A stretch of DNA of 64,000 bases from Labedella gwakjiensis (GCF_003014675.1 NZ_PYAU01000001.1:124001-188000), one strand, 5' to 3'. Positions 7,706-17,615 are shown, numbered from the stretch's first letter. Translations and numbers: made by a program. The notes: generated by a model not told the origin, from the letters alone.

Positions 7706-8371
7706 TCAGCGTGCGGCGACGACCTTCTGCAGGTCGTCGAAGACAGCCGTGTTCGCATCGAAGGCCGCGCGCGCCTCGGCGACGAGGACGTCACGGTCCG
7801 CGTCAGTGAGATCGAGGGCGTCGAGCGCGTCGCGGTAGCCGCGCTTGTAGGGCACGAGCGGCCCGAGCTCGTCGAAGCGGAAGTAGGAGAGCTGCTCATC
7901 GGTGGCGCCGTAGTGGCGCCGGAGCATCGTCGCCATCACCTGCCCACCCGAGAGGTCGCCGAGGTAGCGCGTGTAGTGGTGGGCCACGAGGCGGAGAGGC
8001 TCGGTGCGGGCGATCGCCCGCAGGTGCTCCTCGTAGACGATCGTCGCGGGCAGGGCCGGAACCGTGTCGCGCCAGTCGGGGGCGCCGAGCGCGGCGAGGT
8101 CCCCGTCGATCGCGGCTGCACGATCCAGCCGGCGGTCCTGGAGCACGGATGGGTCGGTCGGGACGGTGTCACGCGACTCGAGGGCCGCGTAGATCCGGGC
8201 GAACTGCGCCAGGTACAGCGTGTACGCGGCGAGGTCGAGCTCCCCTCCCATGAGCGCCGTCATGAACGGGCGCGACTCGGCGGTGCGGTGCTGGGCGTCT
8301 GTGGCCTCGCGCAGAAGCGCGGCGACGCCGGGGGCTGCGTGCTCAGCGGTCGGGGCGATGGTCGTGTCCAT
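7706..8371 (-). CDS. hmuO: Haem oxygenase (biliverdin-producing)
   Basis: 221 residues. It opens haem to biliverdin, CO and Fe2+ in the cytosol, releasing iron from imported haem. The proximal haem ligand is the His at residue 28 in EATDAQHRTAE. The distal-helix glycine motif GDLSGGQ lies around residues 137-143, preceded by YTRYLG. Length matches the HmuO family. It is divergent from hmuT across an intergenic region with two iron boxes, so it should be induced under iron starvation together with haem import. Confidence 0.95.
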   Translation of the reverse strand: MDTTIAPTAEHAAPGVAALLREATDAQHRTAESRPFMTALMGGELDLAAYTLYLAQFARIYAALESRDTVPTDPSVLQDRRLDRAAAIDGDLAALGAPDWRDTVPALPATIVYEEHLRAIARTEPLRLVAHHYTRYLGDLSGGQVMATMLRRHYGATDEQLSYFRFDELGPLVPYKRGYRDALDALDLTDADRDVLVAEARAAFDANTAVFDDLQKVVAAR

Positions 8372-8407: not shown

Positions 8408-8419
8408 TAGTTAATGTGG

Positions 8420-8438
8420 TTAGGGTTGGCTTACCTTC
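8420..8438. promoter_or_regulatory. Probable DtxR/IdeR iron box (hmuT side)
   Basis: TTAGGGTTGGCTTACCTTC matches 13 of 19 positions of the DtxR consensus, about 60 bases upstream of the hmuT start. It pairs with the hmuO-side box. Confidence 0.65.
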
Positions 8439-8500
8439 CTTCGACGCCGCCTCGCCGCCGACATCCCCCCACCGATCGAGAGCATCGCACCGCCGTGACC

Positions 8501-9583
8501 ATGACCAGCCGTTTCCGCATCCTCGCCCTCGTCGTCGCAACGGGCCTGCTCCTCGTGGGGTGCACGACGACAGCAGGAGACGGGGACGGTGATGCCCAGG
8601 CGACCCCGCGGCTCTCCGATGTCACTCCCCTCGCCGATCCCGGCGGATGGGACGGGCCGAGCACAGCCGTCGCGCCTTCCTCCCCCGTCGATCCGGTGAC
8701 GGAGGGCCAGCAGTCGCTGCCTGCGACCGTCACCGACGCCCAGGGGACGACCGTCGAGGTCGACGACACATCGCGCATCCTCGCGCTCGACATCTACGGC
8801 TCCCTCTCGCGGACCGTGTTCGAGCTGGGATTCGGCGATCAGGTGGTGGGACGCGACATCTCGAGCGGTTTCGCGGAGATCGCCGACCGCCCCCTCGTGA
8901 CGCAGAACGGCCACGACCTCAACGCCGAGGCCATCCTCGAGCTGGCCCCGACCCTCATCATCACGGATACGAGCCTCGGCCCCTGGGACACGGTGCTGCA
9001 GATGCGCGACGCAGGCGTCGACGTGGTCGTCGTCGACTCTCACCGCGCGATCGACTCGATCGGGTCGCTCATCGACGGAGTCGCGACGGCACTCGGTGTC
9101 CCCGAGAGAGGCGCGGCTCTCGCCGAGCGGGTCACGGCGTCCGTCGACGCCACCGTCTCGGACATCGCGGCGATCGCGCCGGCCGATGGCGAGCGTCTCC
9201 GCATGGTGTTCCTCTACGTGCGCGGACAGTCGGGCGTCTACTACATGTTCGGCCAGGAGTCCGGGGCCGATGCCCTCGTGACGGCGCTGGGAGGCGAGGA
9301 CGTGTCCTCGGAGATCGGGTGGACCGGGATGCGGCCGATCACGGACGAGGGGCTCGTCGCCGCGAACCCGGACCTCGTGCTCGTCATGACGGGAGGCCTG
9401 GAGTCGGTGGACGGGGTCGACGGTCTGCTCGAGGCTCTGCCTGCGCTGCAGCAGACGCCCGCGGGTGAACACCGTCGTATCGTCGATATGGCCGACTCAC
9501 AGATCCTGAGCTTCGGGCCCGACACGGCCCGCGTTCTCGAAGCCCTCGCCGTGGCCATCTACGCGCCGGACCAGGCCGGATGA
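8501..9583 (+). CDS. hmuT: Haem ABC transporter substrate-binding lipoprotein
   Basis: 360 residues. The lipoprotein signal ends in LLVGC (lipidated Cys21), followed by an acidic, Ser/Pro-rich linker and a class III periplasmic-binding-like fold (ILALDIYGSLSRTVFELG, then NAEAILELAPTLIITD, then GWTGMRPITDEGLVAANPDLVLVM). It should hold haem at the outer membrane face and pass it to HmuUV. I use the ATG at 8501; a GTG six bases earlier is possible. Its stop overlaps the hmuU start (ATGA). Iron boxes lie upstream. Confidence 0.93.
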   Translation: MTSRFRILALVVATGLLLVGCTTTAGDGDGDAQATPRLSDVTPLADPGGWDGPSTAVAPSSPVDPVTEGQQSLPATVTDAQGTTVEVDDTSRILALDIYGSLSRTVFELGFGDQVVGRDISSGFAEIADRPLVTQNGHDLNAEAILELAPTLIITDTSLGPWDTVLQMRDAGVDVVVVDSHRAIDSIGSLIDGVATALGVPERGAALAERVTASVDATVSDIAAIAPADGERLRMVFLYVRGQSGVYYMFGQESGADALVTALGGEDVSSEIGWTGMRPITDEGLVAANPDLVLVMTGGLESVDGVDGLLEALPALQQTPAGEHRRIVDMADSQILSFGPDTARVLEALAVAIYAPDQAG

Positions 9584-10740
9584 GCGCGGCGATCGCGCCG
9601 TCGGTCGGGGCGTCACGGGATGAGCCCACGATCGGCGATCCGTCGCATCCGGCGCCGACGGTCCGCCACCCGCGACGGCGGCGCCGCATCCTGACAGGCC
9701 TGCTCCTCGGCGCGACAACTCTGCTCGCCGTCCTTTCTGCTGGTCTCGGCCAGCTCTCCATCCCGGTCCCCGAGATCCTCGGCTCGGTCGCGGCCCACAC
9801 GAACGACCTGCTGTCGGCCGTGGGTCTCGGCGCGATCACACTGCCGATCGTCGCAGAGCCGGGCCACCCCAACGCCGACGCGACCCTCTGGATGATCCGC
9901 TTCCCCCGCATCGCGATGGCGCTCGTCGTCGGGGCGGCGCTCGCCGTGGGCGGGGCGCTCATGCAGGGCGTGTTCCGCAATCCCCTCGCCGAGCCGGGAG
10001 TGGTCGGGGTGTCGTCGGGTGCGGCCATGGCGGCGGCGATCGCGATCGTCTCCGGTGCGACCTCCGCCGGGCCGCTCACCTCCCCGCTCTTCGCGTTCGT
10101 CGGCGGACTGATCGCCACCTTCCTCGTGTACCTGGCGGCGCGTTCCGGCGGGCGGACGGAGGTCGTCACGCTCGTGCTCACGGGCATCGCCGTGAATGCC
10201 GTGTGCGGCGCCGGGATCGCCCTCGCGACCTTCCTGTCATCCACTCAGCAACGCGAGCAGATCGTGTTCTGGCAGCTCGGCTCGCTCAACGGCACGCGCT
10301 GGCAGGACGTCGCGATCGTCGCCCCTGTCACGGTGATCGGCCTCGTGGGCGCCCTAGCTCTCGCCCACCGGCTCGACCTCCTCGCCCTCGGCGAGCGCCA
10401 AGCGCGCCACCTCGGCGTCTCCATCGAGCGCACGCGGGTGGTCGCGATCGTGCTCGTCGCGATCCTCACGGCAGCGGCCGTCGCGCTGTGCGGCATCATC
10501 GCGTTCGTCGGTCTCGTCGTGCCACATCTCGTGCGCCTCGTCCTCGGTCCGTCCCACCGCCCCCTCATCGCCGTGAGCGCCCTCGGTGGCGCCCTGCTCC
10601 TGCTCGCCGCCGACACCGTCGCGCGCACGGCCGTGCCATACGCCGACCTCCCGATCGGCATGCTCACGGCTCTCGTGGGCGGACCGTTCTTCTTCTGGCT
10701 CCTGCGCCGCACGCGCGTCCGCTCGGGAGGATGGGCGTGA
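9580..10740 (+). CDS. hmuU: Haem ABC transporter permease
   Basis: 386 residues, FecCD/BtuC type, with about ten membrane helices after a ~40-residue cytoplasmic start. Typical segments are RFPRIAMALVVGAALAVGGALMQGVFRNPLAEPGVVGVSSGAA, GIIAFVGLVVPHLVRLVLGPSHR and LPIGMLTALVGGPFFFWLLRR (quoted in part). It forms the haem channel with HmuV. Overlaps of 4 bases at both ends mark tight translational coupling. Confidence 0.93.
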   Translation: MSAAIAPSVGASRDEPTIGDPSHPAPTVRHPRRRRRILTGLLLGATTLLAVLSAGLGQLSIPVPEILGSVAAHTNDLLSAVGLGAITLPIVAEPGHPNADATLWMIRFPRIAMALVVGAALAVGGALMQGVFRNPLAEPGVVGVSSGAAMAAAIAIVSGATSAGPLTSPLFAFVGGLIATFLVYLAARSGGRTEVVTLVLTGIAVNAVCGAGIALATFLSSTQQREQIVFWQLGSLNGTRWQDVAIVAPVTVIGLVGALALAHRLDLLALGERQARHLGVSIERTRVVAIVLVAILTAAAVALCGIIAFVGLVVPHLVRLVLGPSHRPLIAVSALGGALLLLAADTVARTAVPYADLPIGMLTALVGGPFFFWLLRRTRVRSGGWA

Positions 10741-11564
10741 CGGCGATCATCGAGGCACGCGGCCTGCACGTCCGGTTCGGAGCGCGCGAGATCCTGACCG
10801 CCATCGATCTGGCCGTCGGTCCGGGTGAACTCGTGGCCCTCGTGGGACCGAACGGGGCCGGAAAGTCCACGCTGCTGCATGCCCTCTCGGGCGATGCGGC
10901 CCCGACGGACGGCGCCGTGCACCTCGACGGACGGCCCCTCGGCGCGTATCGGCCCGTCGACCTCGCCCGGCGCCGCTCCGTCCTCACCCAGTCGAACGAG
11001 GTCTCGTTCCCGTTCAGCGCGCGCGAGGTCGTCGAGATGGGACGCGCGCCCTGGCGGGGGCGACCGGAGGAGAACGAGGACGACGCACACATCGAGCGCG
11101 CCGTGGAGGACGCCGAGATCGCGCCACTGCTCGACCGCACGATCACCGAGTTGTCAGGCGGCGAGCGCGCCCGTGTCGCGTTCGCGCGTGTGCGCGCCCA
11201 GGCATGCCCGCTCATCCTGCTCGACGAGCCCACAGCGAGTCTCGACATCCGCCACCAGGAGCGGGTGCTCGCGCGTCTCCACCGACACGCGGACGAGGGC
11301 GGGGCCGTCGTCGTCGTGCTGCACGACCTCGATCTCGCCGCGGCCTACGCCGGGCGCGTCGTGGTCCTCGAGGCCGGGCGCATCCGCGCCGACGGGCCTC
11401 CGCGCGAGGCCCTGTCGAGCGACCTGCTCTCCGAGGTGTACCGCCACCCCATCGCGGTCTCCTCCGAGGGAGACACGGTCCGCGTCGGCCCCGTCCGGTC
11501 CGGGTCCACTCCCCCCGTCCCACCCACCGATCACGACCGGAAGGAACACCCGGCCCATGCCTGA
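10737..11564 (+). CDS. hmuV: Haem ABC transporter ATPase
   Basis: 275 residues. Walker A GPNGAGKS is near residues 37-44, the ABC signature LSGGERARV near 138, Walker B LILLDEPTASLD near 160, and the switch His in VVLHDLDLAAAYA. I start at GTG 10737, which has GGGAGG at the ideal distance (10725-10730) and overlaps the hmuU stop by 4 bases; ATG 10731 sits directly on that site. The ~40-residue tail after the ATPase core is Pro/Ser-rich. It powers haem import through HmuU. Confidence 0.93.
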   Translation: MTAIIEARGLHVRFGAREILTAIDLAVGPGELVALVGPNGAGKSTLLHALSGDAAPTDGAVHLDGRPLGAYRPVDLARRRSVLTQSNEVSFPFSAREVVEMGRAPWRGRPEENEDDAHIERAVEDAEIAPLLDRTITELSGGERARVAFARVRAQACPLILLDEPTASLDIRHQERVLARLHRHADEGGAVVVVLHDLDLAAAYAGRVVVLEAGRIRADGPPREALSSDLLSEVYRHPIAVSSEGDTVRVGPVRSGSTPPVPPTDHDRKEHPAHA

Positions 11565-12657
11565 CTCCCCCGCCCGCTCACGCCGCCGCACGTTCGCCGC
11601 CGGGACGGCCTTCACGGCCGTCGCCGTCCTGGCGGCAGCGCTCCTGCCCGGCACTGTGCAACCGGCCGAGGCGGCCGGACGGGTCACCGTCGAGAGCGCG
11701 ACCGGCGGGGCGACGGCCGACCCGGAGTTCGCCACGACGGTCACCGTGACGGGGTCCGGCTTCCAGTCGATCACCGGCGGCTTCGGAGGGGTCTACGTGC
11801 TGTTCGGCTGGGTCGCCGACGGTTCGTCGTGGCGGCCGAGCAACGGCGGCCAGGTGGGCGAGGACTACAGGTACGTACCCGACTCGGAGTCGAAGGACAA
11901 TCAGGGATTCCAGCGCTTCGTCGCCTTCCCGGGGAGTGAGACCGAGGACGCGGCGAACGCCGTGATGGCGGCCGACGGGTCCTGGAGCGTCGAGATGGTC
12001 GTTCCAGGGGCGACGTTCGAGAGCCAGGACCGCTCGGGCGCCGTCAGCTCCGTCGACTGCCTGGAGGTGACCTGCGGCATCATCACGATCGGGGCCCACG
12101 GGGTGAAGAACGCGAACAACGAGACCTTCACACCCCTCGACTTCACCACGTCCACGGGCTCGGAGCCGGCGACCGACGCGGACGACGAGAAGCCGGCAGA
12201 GGGCGGCTCGGCCGCGACCGCCGCACGGGTCGGCTACACGACCACGTCGGCCATCTCCGGTCAGGCGCTCAGCTTCACCGGGCAGGGATTCGAGCCGGGA
12301 GAGCTCATCGTCGCGACGCTCGACGACGGCGTCTCAGCCGTCGGCCCCCTCACGGCCGGGCCGTCCGGAGAGATCGCCGGTGTGCTCCCGCTCCCCGCCG
12401 ATCTCCGCGACGGAACCCATCTCCTCACTCTCACGGGCGCGGCGTCCGGGCGGGTCGCGGAGTCCGACGTGACGGTGAGCGCCGACCCGGCCGCGATACC
12501 GAGTACCACCGAACCGGCGTCAGCGGCGACCTGGCCGTACGTCGTTCTGGGGGTGTCCCTCCTGATCGCGCTCGTGCTCCTCCTGCTCAGCATCGGCACG
12601 TCGATCCGTCGAGGTGTCCGGGCACGCGCTGCGCGGCGCGCGGAGGTGACGGCGTGA
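11557..12657 (+). CDS. Cell-surface protein of the haem locus (HtaC-like position)
   Basis: 366 residues: Sec signal peptide (residues ~1-40, ending AEAAG), two beta-rich domains (about 45-195, and 225-315 with GQALSFTGQGFEPGELIVATL), then a C-terminal membrane helix (about 332-352) and a basic tail. The second domain resembles the Ig-like repeats common in actinobacterial surface proteins. It overlaps hmuV by 8 bases, so it belongs to the haem operon. By position it could be the counterpart of corynebacterial HtaC, but no HtaA domain is visible and haem binding is inference. Confidence 0.8.
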   Translation: MPDSPARSRRRTFAAGTAFTAVAVLAAALLPGTVQPAEAAGRVTVESATGGATADPEFATTVTVTGSGFQSITGGFGGVYVLFGWVADGSSWRPSNGGQVGEDYRYVPDSESKDNQGFQRFVAFPGSETEDAANAVMAADGSWSVEMVVPGATFESQDRSGAVSSVDCLEVTCGIITIGAHGVKNANNETFTPLDFTTSTGSEPATDADDEKPAEGGSAATAARVGYTTTSAISGQALSFTGQGFEPGELIVATLDDGVSAVGPLTAGPSGEIAGVLPLPADLRDGTHLLTLTGAASGRVAESDVTVSADPAAIPSTTEPASAATWPYVVLGVSLLIALVLLLLSIGTSIRRGVRARAARRAEVTA

Positions 12658-13925
12658 TGCGCGGTCGCCGGCCGATGACGGTTCGTCGCACGTGGGCAGC
12701 GGCCATCGTCGCCGCCGCGCTCCTCGGAGCGGCGGCGCCCTCGGCGTCCGCCGCCGCACTCCCCCTCTCCGCTGAGACGGACGACGGCGTGCCCATCGAC
12801 GTCACGGTCCCGGAGTCGACCGACCCACCCGCGCCCGAGGCCGGTGCCGTCGACGACGCGCAACTGCGGTGGGGCCTCAACCGTGAATCGAGCGGCGGCG
12901 CGTTCGCCGGCGGATGCAACTTCCTGAGCGCGGGTCGCGCCGGCGACAGCGGCGGAGCGCGGGTCTGGGGGGCGGGCGACGGACTGTACTCCGCTCAAAG
13001 CGGCGACGTCGAGATCGTCAAGGCGACGACCGACGGCGGTTGGGAGCGCGCGTCCTTCGCCACGAAGTGCCTCGACGCCGCCGGCAACCCCGTCACCGCC
13101 GCGTCGACCGCCTCCTCGACCGACTCGCAGGTCGTGTTCACGGGCGGAGCCGGCACGTTCGGCACCGACGGCGTCGACCTCCGCTGGACCGGCTCGTTCA
13201 CGGTCGCGTTCTACGGCGGGATGACCTACTGGAGCGCGACGGACCCGGCGCTCGCCATCGATGCGTCGGGGAACGGCCGCCTCACCGCGACCCTCAGCGG
13301 CTACGGCACGAGTATGGAGGACATGACGAAGTGGGAGCCGATCGCCGGCCGCACCGTCGTCCTCGCCGAGCTCCGTGACGTGCCCCTCACCGACTCCGGA
13401 TTCCAGATCCTGCCGGAGTACCTGGGCGTGTCGGCGGCGGGCGCCGACCAGGCACCCCGCACCGACGCGAACGCGGCCTACTGGGGAGCGTTCCCCGCGA
13501 GCTTCCTCGGTTTCCAGAAGCTCACGGGCCAGACGGGCTACTGGCTGACGTCGGGCGGCCAGCGCGATCCTGCAAAACCCGCGACGTCCCTCATCGTGAA
13601 CGCCGACGCCGCCGCTCCGGCGATCGTGCCGACGACGAACGAGTCGGCGACCTCCGGCGGATCCACGCCACGCAACGAGGCGGTGTTCGCTCCGGGAAGC
13701 TCCCCGGAGGCGACGACCGGGGCGCCCGAGGCTGCGGCGCTGGGTGCCGCGCAGTCGTGGTCATCGGTCCAACGGGCCACGGCAGGGCTCGTCCCCACGG
13801 CCACGGACCTCGTGACGCCCCTCGTCCTGCCCATCGGAGGCGCGATCCTCGCCGGACTCGTGAGCGTTCTCTCGGTGTTGAACCTCACGGGTCGGCTGCG
13901 CTTCCCCTGGTCGAAGGCGGGGTGA
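12657..13925 (+). CDS. HtaA-domain haem-binding surface protein
   Basis: 422 residues: signal peptide to about residue 33, one HtaA domain (about 60-240), a Ser/Thr-rich linker, and a C-terminal membrane helix with short basic tail. HtaA hallmarks are WGLNRESSGGAF, the segment SFTVAFYGGMTYWSATDP with the conserved Tyr expected to contact haem, and GYGTSMEDMTKW. Two Cys (GGCNF and ATKC) are conserved with the paralogue at 16088-17503. It probably captures haem on the wall and hands it to HmuT. GGAGGTG at 12642-12648 serves either GTG 12654 or ATG 12657. Last gene of the hmuTUV operon. Confidence 0.88.
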   Translation: MRGRRPMTVRRTWAAAIVAAALLGAAAPSASAAALPLSAETDDGVPIDVTVPESTDPPAPEAGAVDDAQLRWGLNRESSGGAFAGGCNFLSAGRAGDSGGARVWGAGDGLYSAQSGDVEIVKATTDGGWERASFATKCLDAAGNPVTAASTASSTDSQVVFTGGAGTFGTDGVDLRWTGSFTVAFYGGMTYWSATDPALAIDASGNGRLTATLSGYGTSMEDMTKWEPIAGRTVVLAELRDVPLTDSGFQILPEYLGVSAAGADQAPRTDANAAYWGAFPASFLGFQKLTGQTGYWLTSGGQRDPAKPATSLIVNADAAAPAIVPTTNESATSGGSTPRNEAVFAPGSSPEATTGAPEAAALGAAQSWSSVQRATAGLVPTATDLVTPLVLPIGGAILAGLVSVLSVLNLTGRLRFPWSKAG

Positions 13926-14968: not shown

Positions 14969-15988
14969 TCACGCGCTCCGGCGCCTCCGGCGCATCAGGA
15001 GGACGATGGCGCCGACGAGAACGGCGATCCCCGCGAGGATGAGGAGCGTCGCCACAGGCACGGCAGCCACACCGAACGGCAGGACGACGGCGTCCAGCTG
15101 CGCCGCCCCGATCCCGACGCTCGTGGGGATGACGTTCACGGCGCCTCCCAACCAGACGAGAGCGGCCACACCGGACACGGTCTGCGTCACTTCCACGGTG
15201 GAGCCCGGCAGTACCTCGGGCAGTTGCTCGGCTCCCGTCGTGAGCGACGCGACACCGGCGGGGCCGTGGATCGATGTCGCCCCCACAGCCGTGACGCGGG
15301 TGTCGCCCGTGTTGCTCAGCGTGTACACGACATCGACCTGGCCGAGGGCGAGGGGGTTCCAGGTCCCGGAGAACGAGACCACCGGATCCGATACCTCGAC
15401 GGATGGAGAGAGCTCACCGGCGACGCGCACGAACAGGCGGCTCCCGAGTCGGCGGTCCACCTGGACCTGCGCGCCGTCGTCGTCCGATCGGAGCGACGTG
15501 ACGATCCCGGCGGGGTGATCGCCCGGCCGGGCGTCGGCAGGAACGGCGATACTGAACGGCACGACACGTGTCTCACCCGGCTGGAGGACGATCTCGGCCG
15601 TATCGAGCTCCACCCACGTGCCCGCGTCCTCCGACTGCTCGCCGGCGGGGAGGAGATCGATGTTCCCCTCCCTCGTCGTGAAGGCGTCGGCGGCGTAGAC
15701 GGCGAGGGTGAGAGCGGCCGCGCCGTCATTGCGCACGGCGAACGCATCATCGATCGTCTCCCCCGGGTCGAGGGCGTAGTCGAAGAAGGGTCGGCCGGCA
15801 CCGTGTGGAGTGTCGGCTGGGGAGACGCTCCAGCTGGCGCCGTCCGTTGCAGCGCTCGAGAGCGTGTGGGCGCGGGTCGCCGCGGCGGCCGCCGTGGCGG
15901 TGCCGCCCGCGGAGACGGCGAAAGCCGTGGCGACGGCCACGGCTGAAAGGAGCATTGTTAGGGTTCGGGTCGTTCGGCTCTGGGGCAT
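14969..15988 (-). CDS. DUF916 (WxL-interacting-type) membrane protein
   Basis: 339 residues: signal peptide to about residue 38, an exported beta-rich region with the DUF916-like pattern (SWSVSPADTPHGAGRPFFDYALDPG, VFRVRND-like AFAVRNDGAAALTL, then PGDHPAGIVTSL and RLGSRLFVRVAGE; parts quoted), a second Ig-like part, one membrane helix (about 308-330) and a RRRRR tail. In Firmicutes such proteins bind peptidoglycan and partner WxL-domain proteins. Here the gene follows an HtaA protein with a WxL-like C-terminus, which suggests it holds that protein on the wall. Confidence 0.8.
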   Translation of the reverse strand: MPQSRTTRTLTMLLSAVAVATAFAVSAGGTATAAAAATRAHTLSSAATDGASWSVSPADTPHGAGRPFFDYALDPGETIDDAFAVRNDGAAALTLAVYAADAFTTREGNIDLLPAGEQSEDAGTWVELDTAEIVLQPGETRVVPFSIAVPADARPGDHPAGIVTSLRSDDDGAQVQVDRRLGSRLFVRVAGELSPSVEVSDPVVSFSGTWNPLALGQVDVVYTLSNTGDTRVTAVGATSIHGPAGVASLTTGAEQLPEVLPGSTVEVTQTVSGVAALVWLGGAVNVIPTSVGIGAAQLDAVVLPFGVAAVPVATLLILAGIAVLVGAIVLLMRRRRRSA

Positions 15989-16038
15989 GCGGGGTCCTGG
16001 CTCGAGGAAGGTTCGGGAGGGGCGCGGAAACGACCGAG

Positions 16039-16070
16039 GGGCGGCGCCGGACCTTCGTCCGGCACCGCCC
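16039..16070 (-). terminator. Strong intercistronic hairpin after the HtaA gene
   Basis: 14-bp stem (16039-16052, 16057-16070) with a single wobble and a 4-base loop, between the HtaA stop (16088) and the DUF916 start (15988). It probably lets only part of the iron-regulated transcript continue into DUF916, or stabilises the HtaA message. Confidence 0.65.
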
Positions 16071-16087
16071 GATCGTCTCGCGTGTGG

Positions 16088-17503
16088 TCAGCCGAGCGCC
16101 GTCACCGTGAGGGTGGAGGTGTACGCGCCTGCGGCGGTGTCGCTCGGGATGACGAGCGACAGCGCGGCATCGACAGAGGCGCTCGCCGCCGCCGTGCTCG
16201 ACGCGAGCGTGGCCGACGATCCGAGCCCCGCGCCGCCACTGAGGGTCGAGGTCACGGGGGTGCCGGCCGTCACGCCGGCGCCCGCGGCGGACACGCTCGG
16301 GGTCCACCCGAGGTATCCGGCCGAGAAGCTGCCGTCGCTCGAGACGAAGTCCGATGCGCTACCCGAGATGCTCCACGAGTACGCTCCGGAACCGCCTGCC
16401 CGCGTATCGGTGACCGCGATCGTGTTGAGGGCTCCGGACGCGGTGAAGGTGCTGCCGGCCTGGGTCGCGGTTCCGAGGCTCACGGCGTCAGCGGAGGTGA
16501 AGGCCCAGCCAAAGCTGCCCGACTCGGGCTCGGGGGCGGCCGGAACGGTCACGTCGATGTCCTGCTCGTCGTCGGCCGGCTCCGTTCCCGGCTCGGTGCC
16601 GGTGCCCGTGACGACGTACGAGACGTCGAGCGGGGTCGTCGGCTTCGCGGCGTCGCGTGACCCGCCCGAGCTGTACCAGTAGCTGCTCTGGCCGGTCAGC
16701 TGCTGGAAGTCCACGAAGCTCTGCGGGAAGGAGCCCCACGTCGCACCCGTGGTGGTCTGCGGGGTTCCGGAGGTCGTGACGGTCTTGCCCAGGTACTCGG
16801 GCGTCACCGTGAAGCCGTCGTCGTCCGCGGCTGCTCCGGTGATGTCGGCGAGCACGATCTCGCGGCCGGAGATCGGGACCCACTGGGTCATGTCCTCCAT
16901 GCTCGTGCCGTAGCCCGACGCCGTCGCGGTGAGCTGGCCGTTGCCGGACGCGTCGAGCGTGAGCACCGGGTCGGTCGCACTCCAGTAGGTGAGGCCGCCG
17001 TAGAACGCGACCGTGAACGATCCCGTCCAGGCGATCTCCGTGGATCCGTCGGCCGCGACGGTCCCCTCTCCCCCGTCGAAGACGACGGCATTCTTGGTGA
17101 GCGATGTCGTCGACGAGGCCGACACGGCCGTGCCCTGCGGCGTCTGGCACTTCGTGGCCCACGTCGGCTGCTCGAGTTCGCCAGCCGCGTTCGGCTTCAC
17201 GATGGTGACGTTGCCCGATTGGGTCGAATAGAAGCCGTCGGACTCGGTCCACAGCCGGGAGCTCCCCGTGTTGCCGGCGGTGCCGGCGCTCAGGAAGTTG
17301 CAGCCGCCGAAGAAGGCGCCGCCGCCGGCTTCGCCGCTGAGACCCCACGTGAAGGAGGCGTCCGAGATCGTGCCGGCGGATGGAGCGGCGGACGCGGCGG
17401 TGGCCGTTCCGAGGGCTGCGCCGATCGAGAGGGCGGCGACGGCGACGAGCGCTGCGGCCTTCCGGGCCGTCGCGCCGGGGCGACGAGGTACTGCTGGGTG
17501 CAC
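16088..17503 (-). CDS. HtaA-domain haem-binding protein with WxL-like C-terminal domain
   Basis: 471 residues. Signal peptide to about 40, HtaA domain (about 45-225: WGLSGEAGGGAFFGGCNF, SFTVAFYGGLTYWSATDP, GYGTSMEDMTQW), an acidic linker, then a C-terminal ~155-residue domain with the features of WxL wall-binding modules: an IAVTDTRAGGSGAYSWSI segment and a final PSDTAAGAYTSTLTVTAL strand. I start at GTG 17503, preceded by AAAGGACA; the open frame continues to 17557 without a site. Two iron boxes lie 74-112 bases upstream. No membrane helix or sortase signal is present, so wall retention must come from the C-terminal domain, probably with the DUF916 partner. Confidence 0.88.
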   Translation of the reverse strand: MHPAVPRRPGATARKAAALVAVAALSIGAALGTATAASAAPSAGTISDASFTWGLSGEAGGGAFFGGCNFLSAGTAGNTGSSRLWTESDGFYSTQSGNVTIVKPNAAGELEQPTWATKCQTPQGTAVSASSTTSLTKNAVVFDGGEGTVAADGSTEIAWTGSFTVAFYGGLTYWSATDPVLTLDASGNGQLTATASGYGTSMEDMTQWVPISGREIVLADITGAAADDDGFTVTPEYLGKTVTTSGTPQTTTGATWGSFPQSFVDFQQLTGQSSYWYSSGGSRDAAKPTTPLDVSYVVTGTGTEPGTEPADDEQDIDVTVPAAPEPESGSFGWAFTSADAVSLGTATQAGSTFTASGALNTIAVTDTRAGGSGAYSWSISGSASDFVSSDGSFSAGYLGWTPSVSAAGAGVTAGTPVTSTLSGGAGLGSSATLASSTAAASASVDAALSLVIPSDTAAGAYTSTLTVTALG

Positions 17504-17576
17504 AGGGTGTCCTTTCGGGAGGGAGACAACCACACGCCTCCGCAGCGGCGCAGGCACTCGCCCCGGAGAGAGTTGG

Positions 17577-17595
17577 TTAGGTTATCCTTAACTTA
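17577..17595. promoter_or_regulatory. Probable DtxR/IdeR iron box 1 upstream of HtaA gene
   Basis: TTAGGTTATCCTTAACTTA matches 15 of 19 consensus positions, the best iron box in the window. Confidence 0.8.
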
Positions 17596-17596
17596 C

Positions 17597-17615
17597 TTAG
17601 GAGAGCCTTACCTTT
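17597..17615. promoter_or_regulatory. Probable DtxR/IdeR iron box 2 upstream of HtaA gene
   Basis: TTAGGAGAGCCTTACCTTT matches 14 of 19 positions and begins 20 bp after box 1, about two helical turns, which favours binding of two dimers. Confidence 0.75.

What the first reader, a model, noticed from the sequence alone, without database searches (positions are those of the whole stretch)
14969..17503. Haem-binding HtaA domain joined to a WxL-like wall-binding domain, next to a DUF916 partner gene
The protein at 16088-17503 has a clear HtaA domain but no membrane helix or sortase signal. Its last ~155 residues show the VTDTR and terminal TSTLTVTAL pattern of WxL domains. The next gene in the unit is a DUF916 membrane protein, the partner class of WxL proteins in Firmicutes. 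This suggests a haem-capture protein held on the actinobacterial wall by a WxL/DUF916 mechanism, under iron control. HtaA and WxL are known separately; I do not recall this combination being described.
Basis: partly seen in the sequence, partly recalled or inferred. Interest (0 to 1): 0.75.

Follow-up and report, generated by a model that had tools for sequence, protein, structure and literature searches.

The report
Haem-locus receptor with WxL wall anchor
A soil/plant actinobacterium carries, in its iron-regulated haem-uptake locus, a surface receptor related to the diphtheria haemoglobin receptor that appears to be held on the cell by a wall-anchoring module (WxL plus its partner DUF916) known so far almost only from lactic-acid bacteria and their kin; the same pairing recurs across many actinobacteria.

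Summary
The gene at 16088-17503 (-) encodes a signal peptide, a beta-sandwich of the HtaA/CR superfamily and a C-terminal WxL-like domain; a DUF916 (WxLIP) membrane-protein gene follows 99 bp downstream. Neither domain of the window protein reaches a Pfam or NCBIfam model, but both assignments stand on family profiles, folds and linkage. The WxL-like domain aligns to Bacillota WxL at hhalign probability 96-97% (controls <8%). DUF916 follows 29 of 30 testable fusions and 0 of 58 relatives that lack the WxL-like domain. In this genome the only WxL-like domain and the only DUF916 are neighbours. The pair belongs to a haem-uptake locus (heme oxygenase, HmuTUV) with DtxR-like boxes, conserved in most relatives. 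Canonical HtaA-WxL + DUF916 loci also exist in other actinobacterial families. Two corrections: the N-terminal domain is closest to HbpA, the haemoglobin receptor of C. diphtheriae, not to HtaA, and it lacks the conserved axial tyrosine; the mature protein has no histidine. 'Haem-binding' is therefore unproven; haemoprotein capture, or haem ligation by the invariant Tyr168, is as likely. The second WxL motif has lost its Trp. New variant of a known kind: known modules, an undescribed combination, recurrent in evolution.

The parts
16088..17503 (-). HbpA/HtaA-like + WxL-like fusion gene, 471 aa
   Evidence: ORF with RBS; 33 fusion proteins in 32 related loci
17387..17503 (-). signal peptide region, residues 1-39
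   Evidence: hydrophobic stretch ending ASAAP; low-confidence segment in the model
16604..17377 (-). CR-superfamily (HbpA-like) domain, residues 43-300
   Evidence: AF2 model; VIA-align Z 14.7 to HbpA 9bcj_C, 13.4-13.6 to HtaA 6jsa/6jsc; profile hit to HbpA 9bch E=8.2e-4
17000..17002 (-). Tyr168 codon, invariant in 90/90 family members, aligned with the helper His/Tyr position of HtaA/HbpA
16088..16525 (-). WxL-like domain, residues 327-471 (D366, R368, W377; LGW 398-400; terminal TLTVTAL)
   Evidence: hhalign to Bacillota WxL prob 96-97%; 38/58 members hit PF13731 at E<=1; AF2 pLDDT 94.8
15989..16087 (-). intercistronic gap with strong GC stem-loop, no T-run
   Evidence: fold -52.6 kcal/mol; similar in L001, L003, L005, L017, L018
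14969..15988 (-). DUF916/WxLIP-type membrane protein, 339 aa (PGBD residues 66-162, C-terminal TM, Arg-rich tail)
   Evidence: PF06030 E=1.2e-9; only copy in the genome; family profile hits EfmWxLIP1 9i25/9i1y
17572..17615 (.). two DtxR-like boxes (15/19 and 14/19) upstream of the fusion gene
   Evidence: present also in L001-L006, L018, L021
8388..8438 (.). DtxR-like boxes between heme oxygenase and hmuT
7706..8371 (-). heme oxygenase
   Evidence: PF01126 E=1.5e-46
8414..9583 (+). HmuT-like haem-binding lipoprotein
   Evidence: PF01497 E=9.2e-27
9580..10740 (+). HmuU-like permease
   Evidence: PF01032 E=5.3e-93
10728..11564 (+). HmuV-like ATPase
   Evidence: NF010068 heme ABC ATPase, 287.5 bits, over cut-off
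11557..12657 (+). conserved haem-locus membrane-anchored protein, no named family
12654..13925 (+). second HbpA-like protein, with a C-terminal TM anchor and no WxL-like domain
   Evidence: whole-genome match at G000:C1:136840-137766; orthologues

Best explanation
It is an iron-repressed surface receptor of an actinobacterial haem-uptake system whose capture domain (CR superfamily, HbpA-type) is displayed by a WxL/WxLIP anchor instead of the usual transmembrane or sortase tail. Shown here: domain make-up, strict pairing with DUF916, place in a heme-oxygenase/HmuTUV locus, DtxR-like boxes. Inferred: after secretion the pilin-like WxL domain docks on DUF916, probably by accepting a DUF916 hairpin strand into its open sandwich as predicted for Enterococcus WxLIP. 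DUF916 is held in the membrane by its C-terminal helix and, with WxL, contacts peptidoglycan. The HbpA-like domain then captures haem or a haemoprotein, and haem passes through the membrane-anchored HbpA-like paralogue (12654-13925) and HmuT to HmuUV and heme oxygenase.
For: WxL homology: hhalign prob 97.2%, E 2.9e-11 with all C-domains and 96.0%, E 4.9e-9 with HbpA-like-fusion loci only; unrelated controls 0.1-7.3%. Asp/Arg at W1-8/W1-6, the published WxL pair (PMC9772566): D 58/58, R 57/58, D-to-aromatic spacing 8 in 43 of 57. Linkage: DUF916 follows 29/30 fusions, 11/11 WxL-like proteins with other N-termini and 0/58 HbpA-like proteins without WxL (Fisher p 2e-22). In 118 class-wide genomes 33/46 DUF916 genes lie directly behind a WxL-like domain, and co-occurrence p is 5e-14. 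Own genome: one credible WxL-like domain (next hit E 0.135), one DUF916, adjacent. A solved complex 9i25 holds an Enterococcus WxL domain and EfmWxLIP1; our DUF916 profile hits EfmWxLIP1 at E 5e-4. Haem context: hmuTUV accompanies the pair in most relatives. Canonical HtaA-WxL + DUF916 occur in G110, G095, G171, G012, G035, G001, with HmuTUV genes nearby. Fold: HbpA Z 14.7, HtaA Z about 13.5. DtxR-like boxes.
Against: No wet data. The window protein itself matches no curated WxL or HtaA model. The second WxL tryptophan is replaced (TLTVTAL; Leu/Ile/Val in 58/58). The canonical axial Tyr of the alpha1 helix is absent (F64; F/Y/P in the family) and the mature protein has no His. No DUF3324 match in the DUF916 protein, so the partner is not a full WxLIP as defined in Bacillota. 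Foldseek and VIA-align did not list 9i25 for the WxL-like model; they list pilins and GH123 N-domains at Z 6-8.5.
Confidence: 0.68

Rival explanations
1. DUF916 is a periplasmic folding or secretion partner rather than an anchor: it completes the pilin-like WxL domain during export and the HbpA-like protein is then shed as a soluble haemophore, as C. diphtheriae HtaA and ChtA partly are.
For: The WxL-like domain folds like donor-strand-complemented pilins (CfaE Z 8.4, Csu/Fim 6-7). No membrane or sortase anchor in the protein itself. CR haemophores are partly secreted (PMC12494546).
Against: Bacillota WxL domains bind peptidoglycan and WxLIP is described as a wall platform (PMC10599100). HbpA-like and HtaA-like relatives otherwise carry permanent anchors: TM, LPXTG-like, S-layer-like or wall-binding repeats.
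Confidence: 0.17
2. The N-terminal domain is a haemoprotein receptor only (HbpA-like) and never ligates haem; it brings a haemoprotein to the surface and other proteins take the haem. (This rival concerns the ligand only and is compatible with WxL/DUF916 anchoring.)
For: Best structure and best PDB profile hit are both HbpA. Canonical axial Tyr missing, no His in the mature protein. HbpA binds the Hb alpha chain (PMC12494546).
Against: Tyr168 is invariant in 90/90 at the helper-residue position and Tyr275 (88/90) lies after the second helix where CR domains place a propionate-contacting Tyr, so a haem pocket with a changed ligand is possible.
Confidence: 0.45
3. The C-terminal domain is a generic Ig/pilin-like spacer without WxL function, and the DUF916 neighbourhood is a lineage habit of haem loci.
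For: Structure hits are pilins and GH123 N-domains, not WxL; second WxL motif degenerate.
Against: DUF916 tracks this domain and not the haem locus: 11/11 WxL-like proteins with other N-termini, mostly outside haem loci, also precede DUF916, while 58 HbpA-like proteins without it never do. hhalign 96-97% to Bacillota WxL.
Confidence: 0.07

Closest known systems
HbpA, haemoglobin receptor of Corynebacterium diphtheriae (9bch/9bcj)
   Same: CR-superfamily beta-sandwich; closest fold (Z 14.7, 23% identity over 175 residues) and best PDB profile hit (E 8.2e-4); iron-regulated surface protein of a haem system
   Different: HbpA is not described with a WxL domain; here the domain carries two cysteines conserved in 80/90 members and a long insertion, in non-corynebacterial, mostly environmental genomes; ligand unknown
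HtaA/ChtA CR-domain haemophores (PF04213)
   Same: Superfamily (hhalign 95.5%, 10/25 members hit PF04213), locus with hmuTUV and DtxR control
   Different: Conserved axial Tyr and helper His absent in the window protein; anchor is WxL-like instead of a membrane tail
WxL / WxLIP (DUF916-DUF3324) surface clusters of Lactobacillales, Enterococcus and Listeria
   Same: C-terminal WxL domain, DUF916 membrane partner encoded next door, Asp/Arg pair, first Trp motif
   Different: Second Trp lost; no DUF3324 match; no separate small WxL protein in this genome; cargo is a haem-system receptor; reported distribution is over 91% Firmicutes

Membership tests
WxL domain (PF13731) | Domain at the C-terminal end of a secreted protein | tested here: met
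   0 residues after the domain in nearly all members
WxL domain (PF13731) | Curated model over cut-off for the window protein | tested here: not met
   No match at E<=10; 38/58 family members match at E<=1, best 1.7e-6
WxL domain (PF13731) | Profile similarity to Bacillota WxL domains | tested here: met
   hhalign 96.0-97.2%, E 4.9e-9 to 2.9e-11; controls <8%
WxL domain (PF13731) | First motif W-x-L with Asp at W-8 and Arg at W-6 | tested here: met
   D 58/58, R 57/58, W 53/58; W-x-[L/I/V/A], window WSI; spacing 8 in 43/57, 11 in the window clade
WxL domain (PF13731) | Second motif W-x-L near the C-terminus | tested here: not met
   TLT[LIV]T: Trp replaced in 58/58; hence 'WxL-like', a divergent branch
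WxL domain (PF13731) | Partner DUF916 gene adjacent | tested here: met
   29/30 fusions; sole pair in own genome
WxL domain (PF13731) | Peptidoglycan binding | not testable with these tools
   wall-binding assay needed
WxLIP (DUF916-DUF3324-TM) | DUF916/PGBD domain | tested here: met
   PF06030 38.7 bits (cut-off 27.3); 28/28 family members
WxLIP (DUF916-DUF3324-TM) | DUF3324/HBD domain | tested here: not met
   no PF11797 among the listed matches of the window protein or 28 relatives; a structural counterpart was not modelled
WxLIP (DUF916-DUF3324-TM) | C-terminal transmembrane helix | tested here: met
   sequence...VATLLILAGIAVLVGAIVLLMRRRRRSA
HtaA CR domain (PF04213) | CR beta-sandwich fold and homology | tested here: met
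   Z 13.4-13.6 to HtaA, 2.6-2.7 A; hhalign 95.5%; 10/25 fusions hit PF04213
HtaA CR domain (PF04213) | Axial Tyr in helix alpha1 after WG(x)n | tested here: not met
   no Tyr within W53+12; F64 is F 51, Y 29, P 7 of 90. By sequence position; pocket geometry not inspected
HtaA CR domain (PF04213) | Helper His (or Tyr in ChtA) in the beta6-beta7 loop | tested here: inconclusive
   Tyr168 (90/90) aligns there; no His in the mature protein
HbpA-type haemoglobin receptor | Closest sequence and fold | tested here: met
HbpA-type haemoglobin receptor | Binds haemoglobin | not testable with these tools
   binding assay needed

The most novel reading that the evidence does not exclude
Across Actinomycetota a divergent WxL/DUF916 pair is a general, exchangeable non-covalent surface anchor, and haem-uptake loci have repeatedly put different CR modules (HbpA-type, HtaA-type) on it; the anchor works by strand complementation between DUF916 and the pilin-like WxL domain, and environmental HbpA-type receptors capture non-animal haemoproteins.
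Probability: 0.2. Interest if true: 0.82.

Novelty: new variant of a known kind. Interest (0 to 1): 0.62.

Why it matters
It links two fields that have not been joined in the papers I could search: CR/HbpA haem receptors, whose known anchors are membrane tails, and WxL/WxLIP complexes, described almost only in gut Bacillota and in terms of host adhesion. A WxL pair serving nutrient uptake in soil and plant actinobacteria argues against host binding as its basic role and gives a simple one-receptor, one-partner system in which to test how WxL anchoring works. It also places HbpA-type domains far outside pathogenic corynebacteria, which raises the question of what they bind there.

Tried and rejected
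Pfam/NCBIfam on the window protein: no hit to HtaA or WxL, so single-sequence searches cannot settle it. PF13731 and PF04213 in the own genome: no match; a family profile finds the WxL-like domain at 1.4e-45. phmmer to PDB with the single protein: nothing. Foldseek/VIA-align did not list the WxL chain 9i25_A for the C-domain model; best rows were pilins and GH123 N-domains at Z<=8.5, within the range of common arrangements. Considered and rejected: a Pfam-level 'clear HtaA' label; a haem ligation scheme copied from HtaA; chance adjacency of DUF916. A class-wide search with the DUF916 alignment failed on the server and was replaced by PF06030. PNAS 2025 HbpA paper and the J Bacteriol 2022 HbpA paper not held. 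The C-domain tree rests on 134 columns and many forks are open.

Full report
OBSERVATION. The minus-strand gene 17503-16088 (GTG start, AAAGGA six bases upstream) encodes 471 residues: a signal peptide, a beta-rich domain (about 43-300), an acidic/proline linker and a C-terminal domain (327-471) ending ...YTSTLTVTALG. Ninety-nine bases further 3' on the same strand lies 15988-14969, a 339-residue protein with PF06030 (DUF916, now WxLIP_PGBD; E 1.2e-9) and a C-terminal transmembrane segment. The genome is a Labedella (Microbacteriaceae), judged from its nearest loci. Single-sequence searches, however, do not support either domain name: the window protein has no Pfam or NCBIfam match.

WXL-LIKE DOMAIN. 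Sixty-five related loci were fetched. In the loci searched, the C-domain sits at the extreme C-terminus of 60-odd proteins. Of 58 such domains, 38 match PF13731 at E<=1 (best 1.7e-6); part of this set was itself collected with PF13731, so I repeated the profile test with C-domains from HbpA-like-fusion loci only. Against a WxL alignment built from twelve Bacillota plasmid proteins, hhalign gives 97.2% (all C-domains) and 96.0% (fusion loci only), with controls against the HtaA, HbpA-like and DUF916 alignments at 0.1-7.3%. Published WxL landmarks (PMC9772566) are present: Asp at W1-8 and Arg at W1-6 (D 58/58, R 57/58, spacing 8 in 43/57; the window clade has three extra residues) and the first Trp (53/58). 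The second Trp is Leu/Ile/Val in 58/58. I therefore call it a divergent, actinobacterial WxL-like domain. AlphaFold2 gives a confident pilin-like sandwich (pLDDT 94.8), with pilins and GH123 N-domains as nearest solved folds at Z<=8.5.

LINKAGE TO DUF916. Among HbpA-like proteins in the loci, DUF916 follows 29 of 30 testable fusions and none of 58 proteins that lack the WxL-like domain; it also follows 11 of 11 WxL-like proteins with other N-termini (Fisher p 2e-22; related genomes are not independent, so the p-value is a guide). In 118 genomes drawn across the class, 25 of 28 genomes with DUF916 also have a WxL-like domain (p 5e-14), and 33 of 46 DUF916 genes lie directly behind one. In the window's genome both are single copy and adjacent. 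A solved Enterococcus complex (9i25) holds a WxL domain and EfmWxLIP1, and Hassan et al. predict that a WxLIP hairpin completes the WxL sandwich (PMC10599100). DUF3324, the second domain of Bacillota WxLIP, was not detected.

N-TERMINAL DOMAIN. It belongs to the CR/HtaA superfamily: 10 of 25 fusions match PF04213, and hhalign to HtaA domains gives 95.5% over the core. The nearest solved structure is HbpA, the C. diphtheriae haemoglobin receptor (9bcj_C Z 14.7, 3.1 A, 175 residues, 23% identity), followed by HtaA (Z about 13.5; the margin is small, so the fold alone does not decide). The profile search does favour HbpA (E 8.2e-4 against 0.076 for HtaA). CR domains bind hemin through an axial Tyr in helix alpha1 with a helper His or Tyr (PMC12494546). 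Here no Tyr follows the WG motif within 12 residues (F64; F/Y/P across 90 sequences), the mature protein has no His, and the one Tyr invariant in 90/90 is Tyr168, aligned with the helper position; Tyr275 (88/90) follows the second helix. So canonical HtaA chemistry is not met; either Tyr168 or another residue ligates haem, or the domain binds a haemoprotein as HbpA does.

LOCUS AND REGULATION. The window carries heme oxygenase, HmuT, HmuU, HmuV, an unnamed conserved protein (11557-12657) and a membrane-anchored HbpA-like paralogue (12654-13925). Most fusion-bearing relatives keep this set close by, often as one operon ending in fusion gene + DUF916, in Microbacteriaceae, Cellulomonadaceae, Ruaniaceae, Dermabacteraceae, Propionibacteriaceae, Bifidobacteriaceae and Streptomyces. 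DtxR-like boxes of 14/19 or better occur at only two places in the window, upstream of this gene and upstream of hmuT; first-order random sequence gave none. Relatives have them upstream of the fusion gene or of the hmu operon.

RECURRENCE. Unmistakable PF04213 HtaA domains, in G110/G171 with the WGxK..F..Y and GH motifs intact, are fused to the same WxL-like domain and followed by DUF916 in G110, G171 and G095, G012 and G035 (where HtaA-WxL and HbpA-like-WxL stand side by side before one DUF916) and G001. On the C-domain tree the HtaA label needs at least four changes along supported branches (short alignment, six rows), so modules were joined or swapped repeatedly. Full-length fusions occur in 7 of 150 Microbacteriaceae genomes.

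MECHANISM AND NOVELTY. Best reading: an iron-repressed haem or haemoprotein receptor displayed by non-covalent WxL/DUF916 anchoring and feeding HmuTUV. Rivals are DUF916 as folding partner of a shed haemophore, and haemoprotein-only binding. No paper in the searched library joins HtaA with WxL. The parts are known; the combination, its conservation and the lost second Trp make it a new variant of a known kind.

Noticed in passing
window 11557-12657 (+); also L018, L021, L022, L023, L034, L128, L147: Conserved haem-locus protein with no named family; its core module also occurs inserted between the HbpA-like or HtaA domain and the WxL-like domain in several fusions.
   Followed up: partly
window 15989-16087: Strong GC-rich stem-loop without T-run between the fusion gene and DUF916, with similar ones in L001, L003, L005, L017, L018; may set the ratio of the two products.
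   Followed up: partly
L073, L083: WxL-like domains carry other cargo: GH43 plus ricin-type lectin (L073, DUF916 next) and an M64 peptidase (L083).
   Followed up: partly
L020, L045, L027, L030, L008, L009, L032: HbpA-like proteins without WxL end in other anchors: wall-binding-repeat-like (L020, L045), S-layer-homology-like (L027, L030), LPXTG-like (L008, L009, L032) or plain TM tails (by sequence inspection).
   Followed up: no
G004, G032, G067, G083, G096 (L066-L071): A family of small genomes (1-1.7 Mb) with several WxL-like genes; DUF916 lies about 3 kb away on the opposite strand in some of them.
   Followed up: no
L145 12522-13812 (G012): DUF916 appears split into two overlapping frames, so PF06030 misses it there.
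   Followed up: no
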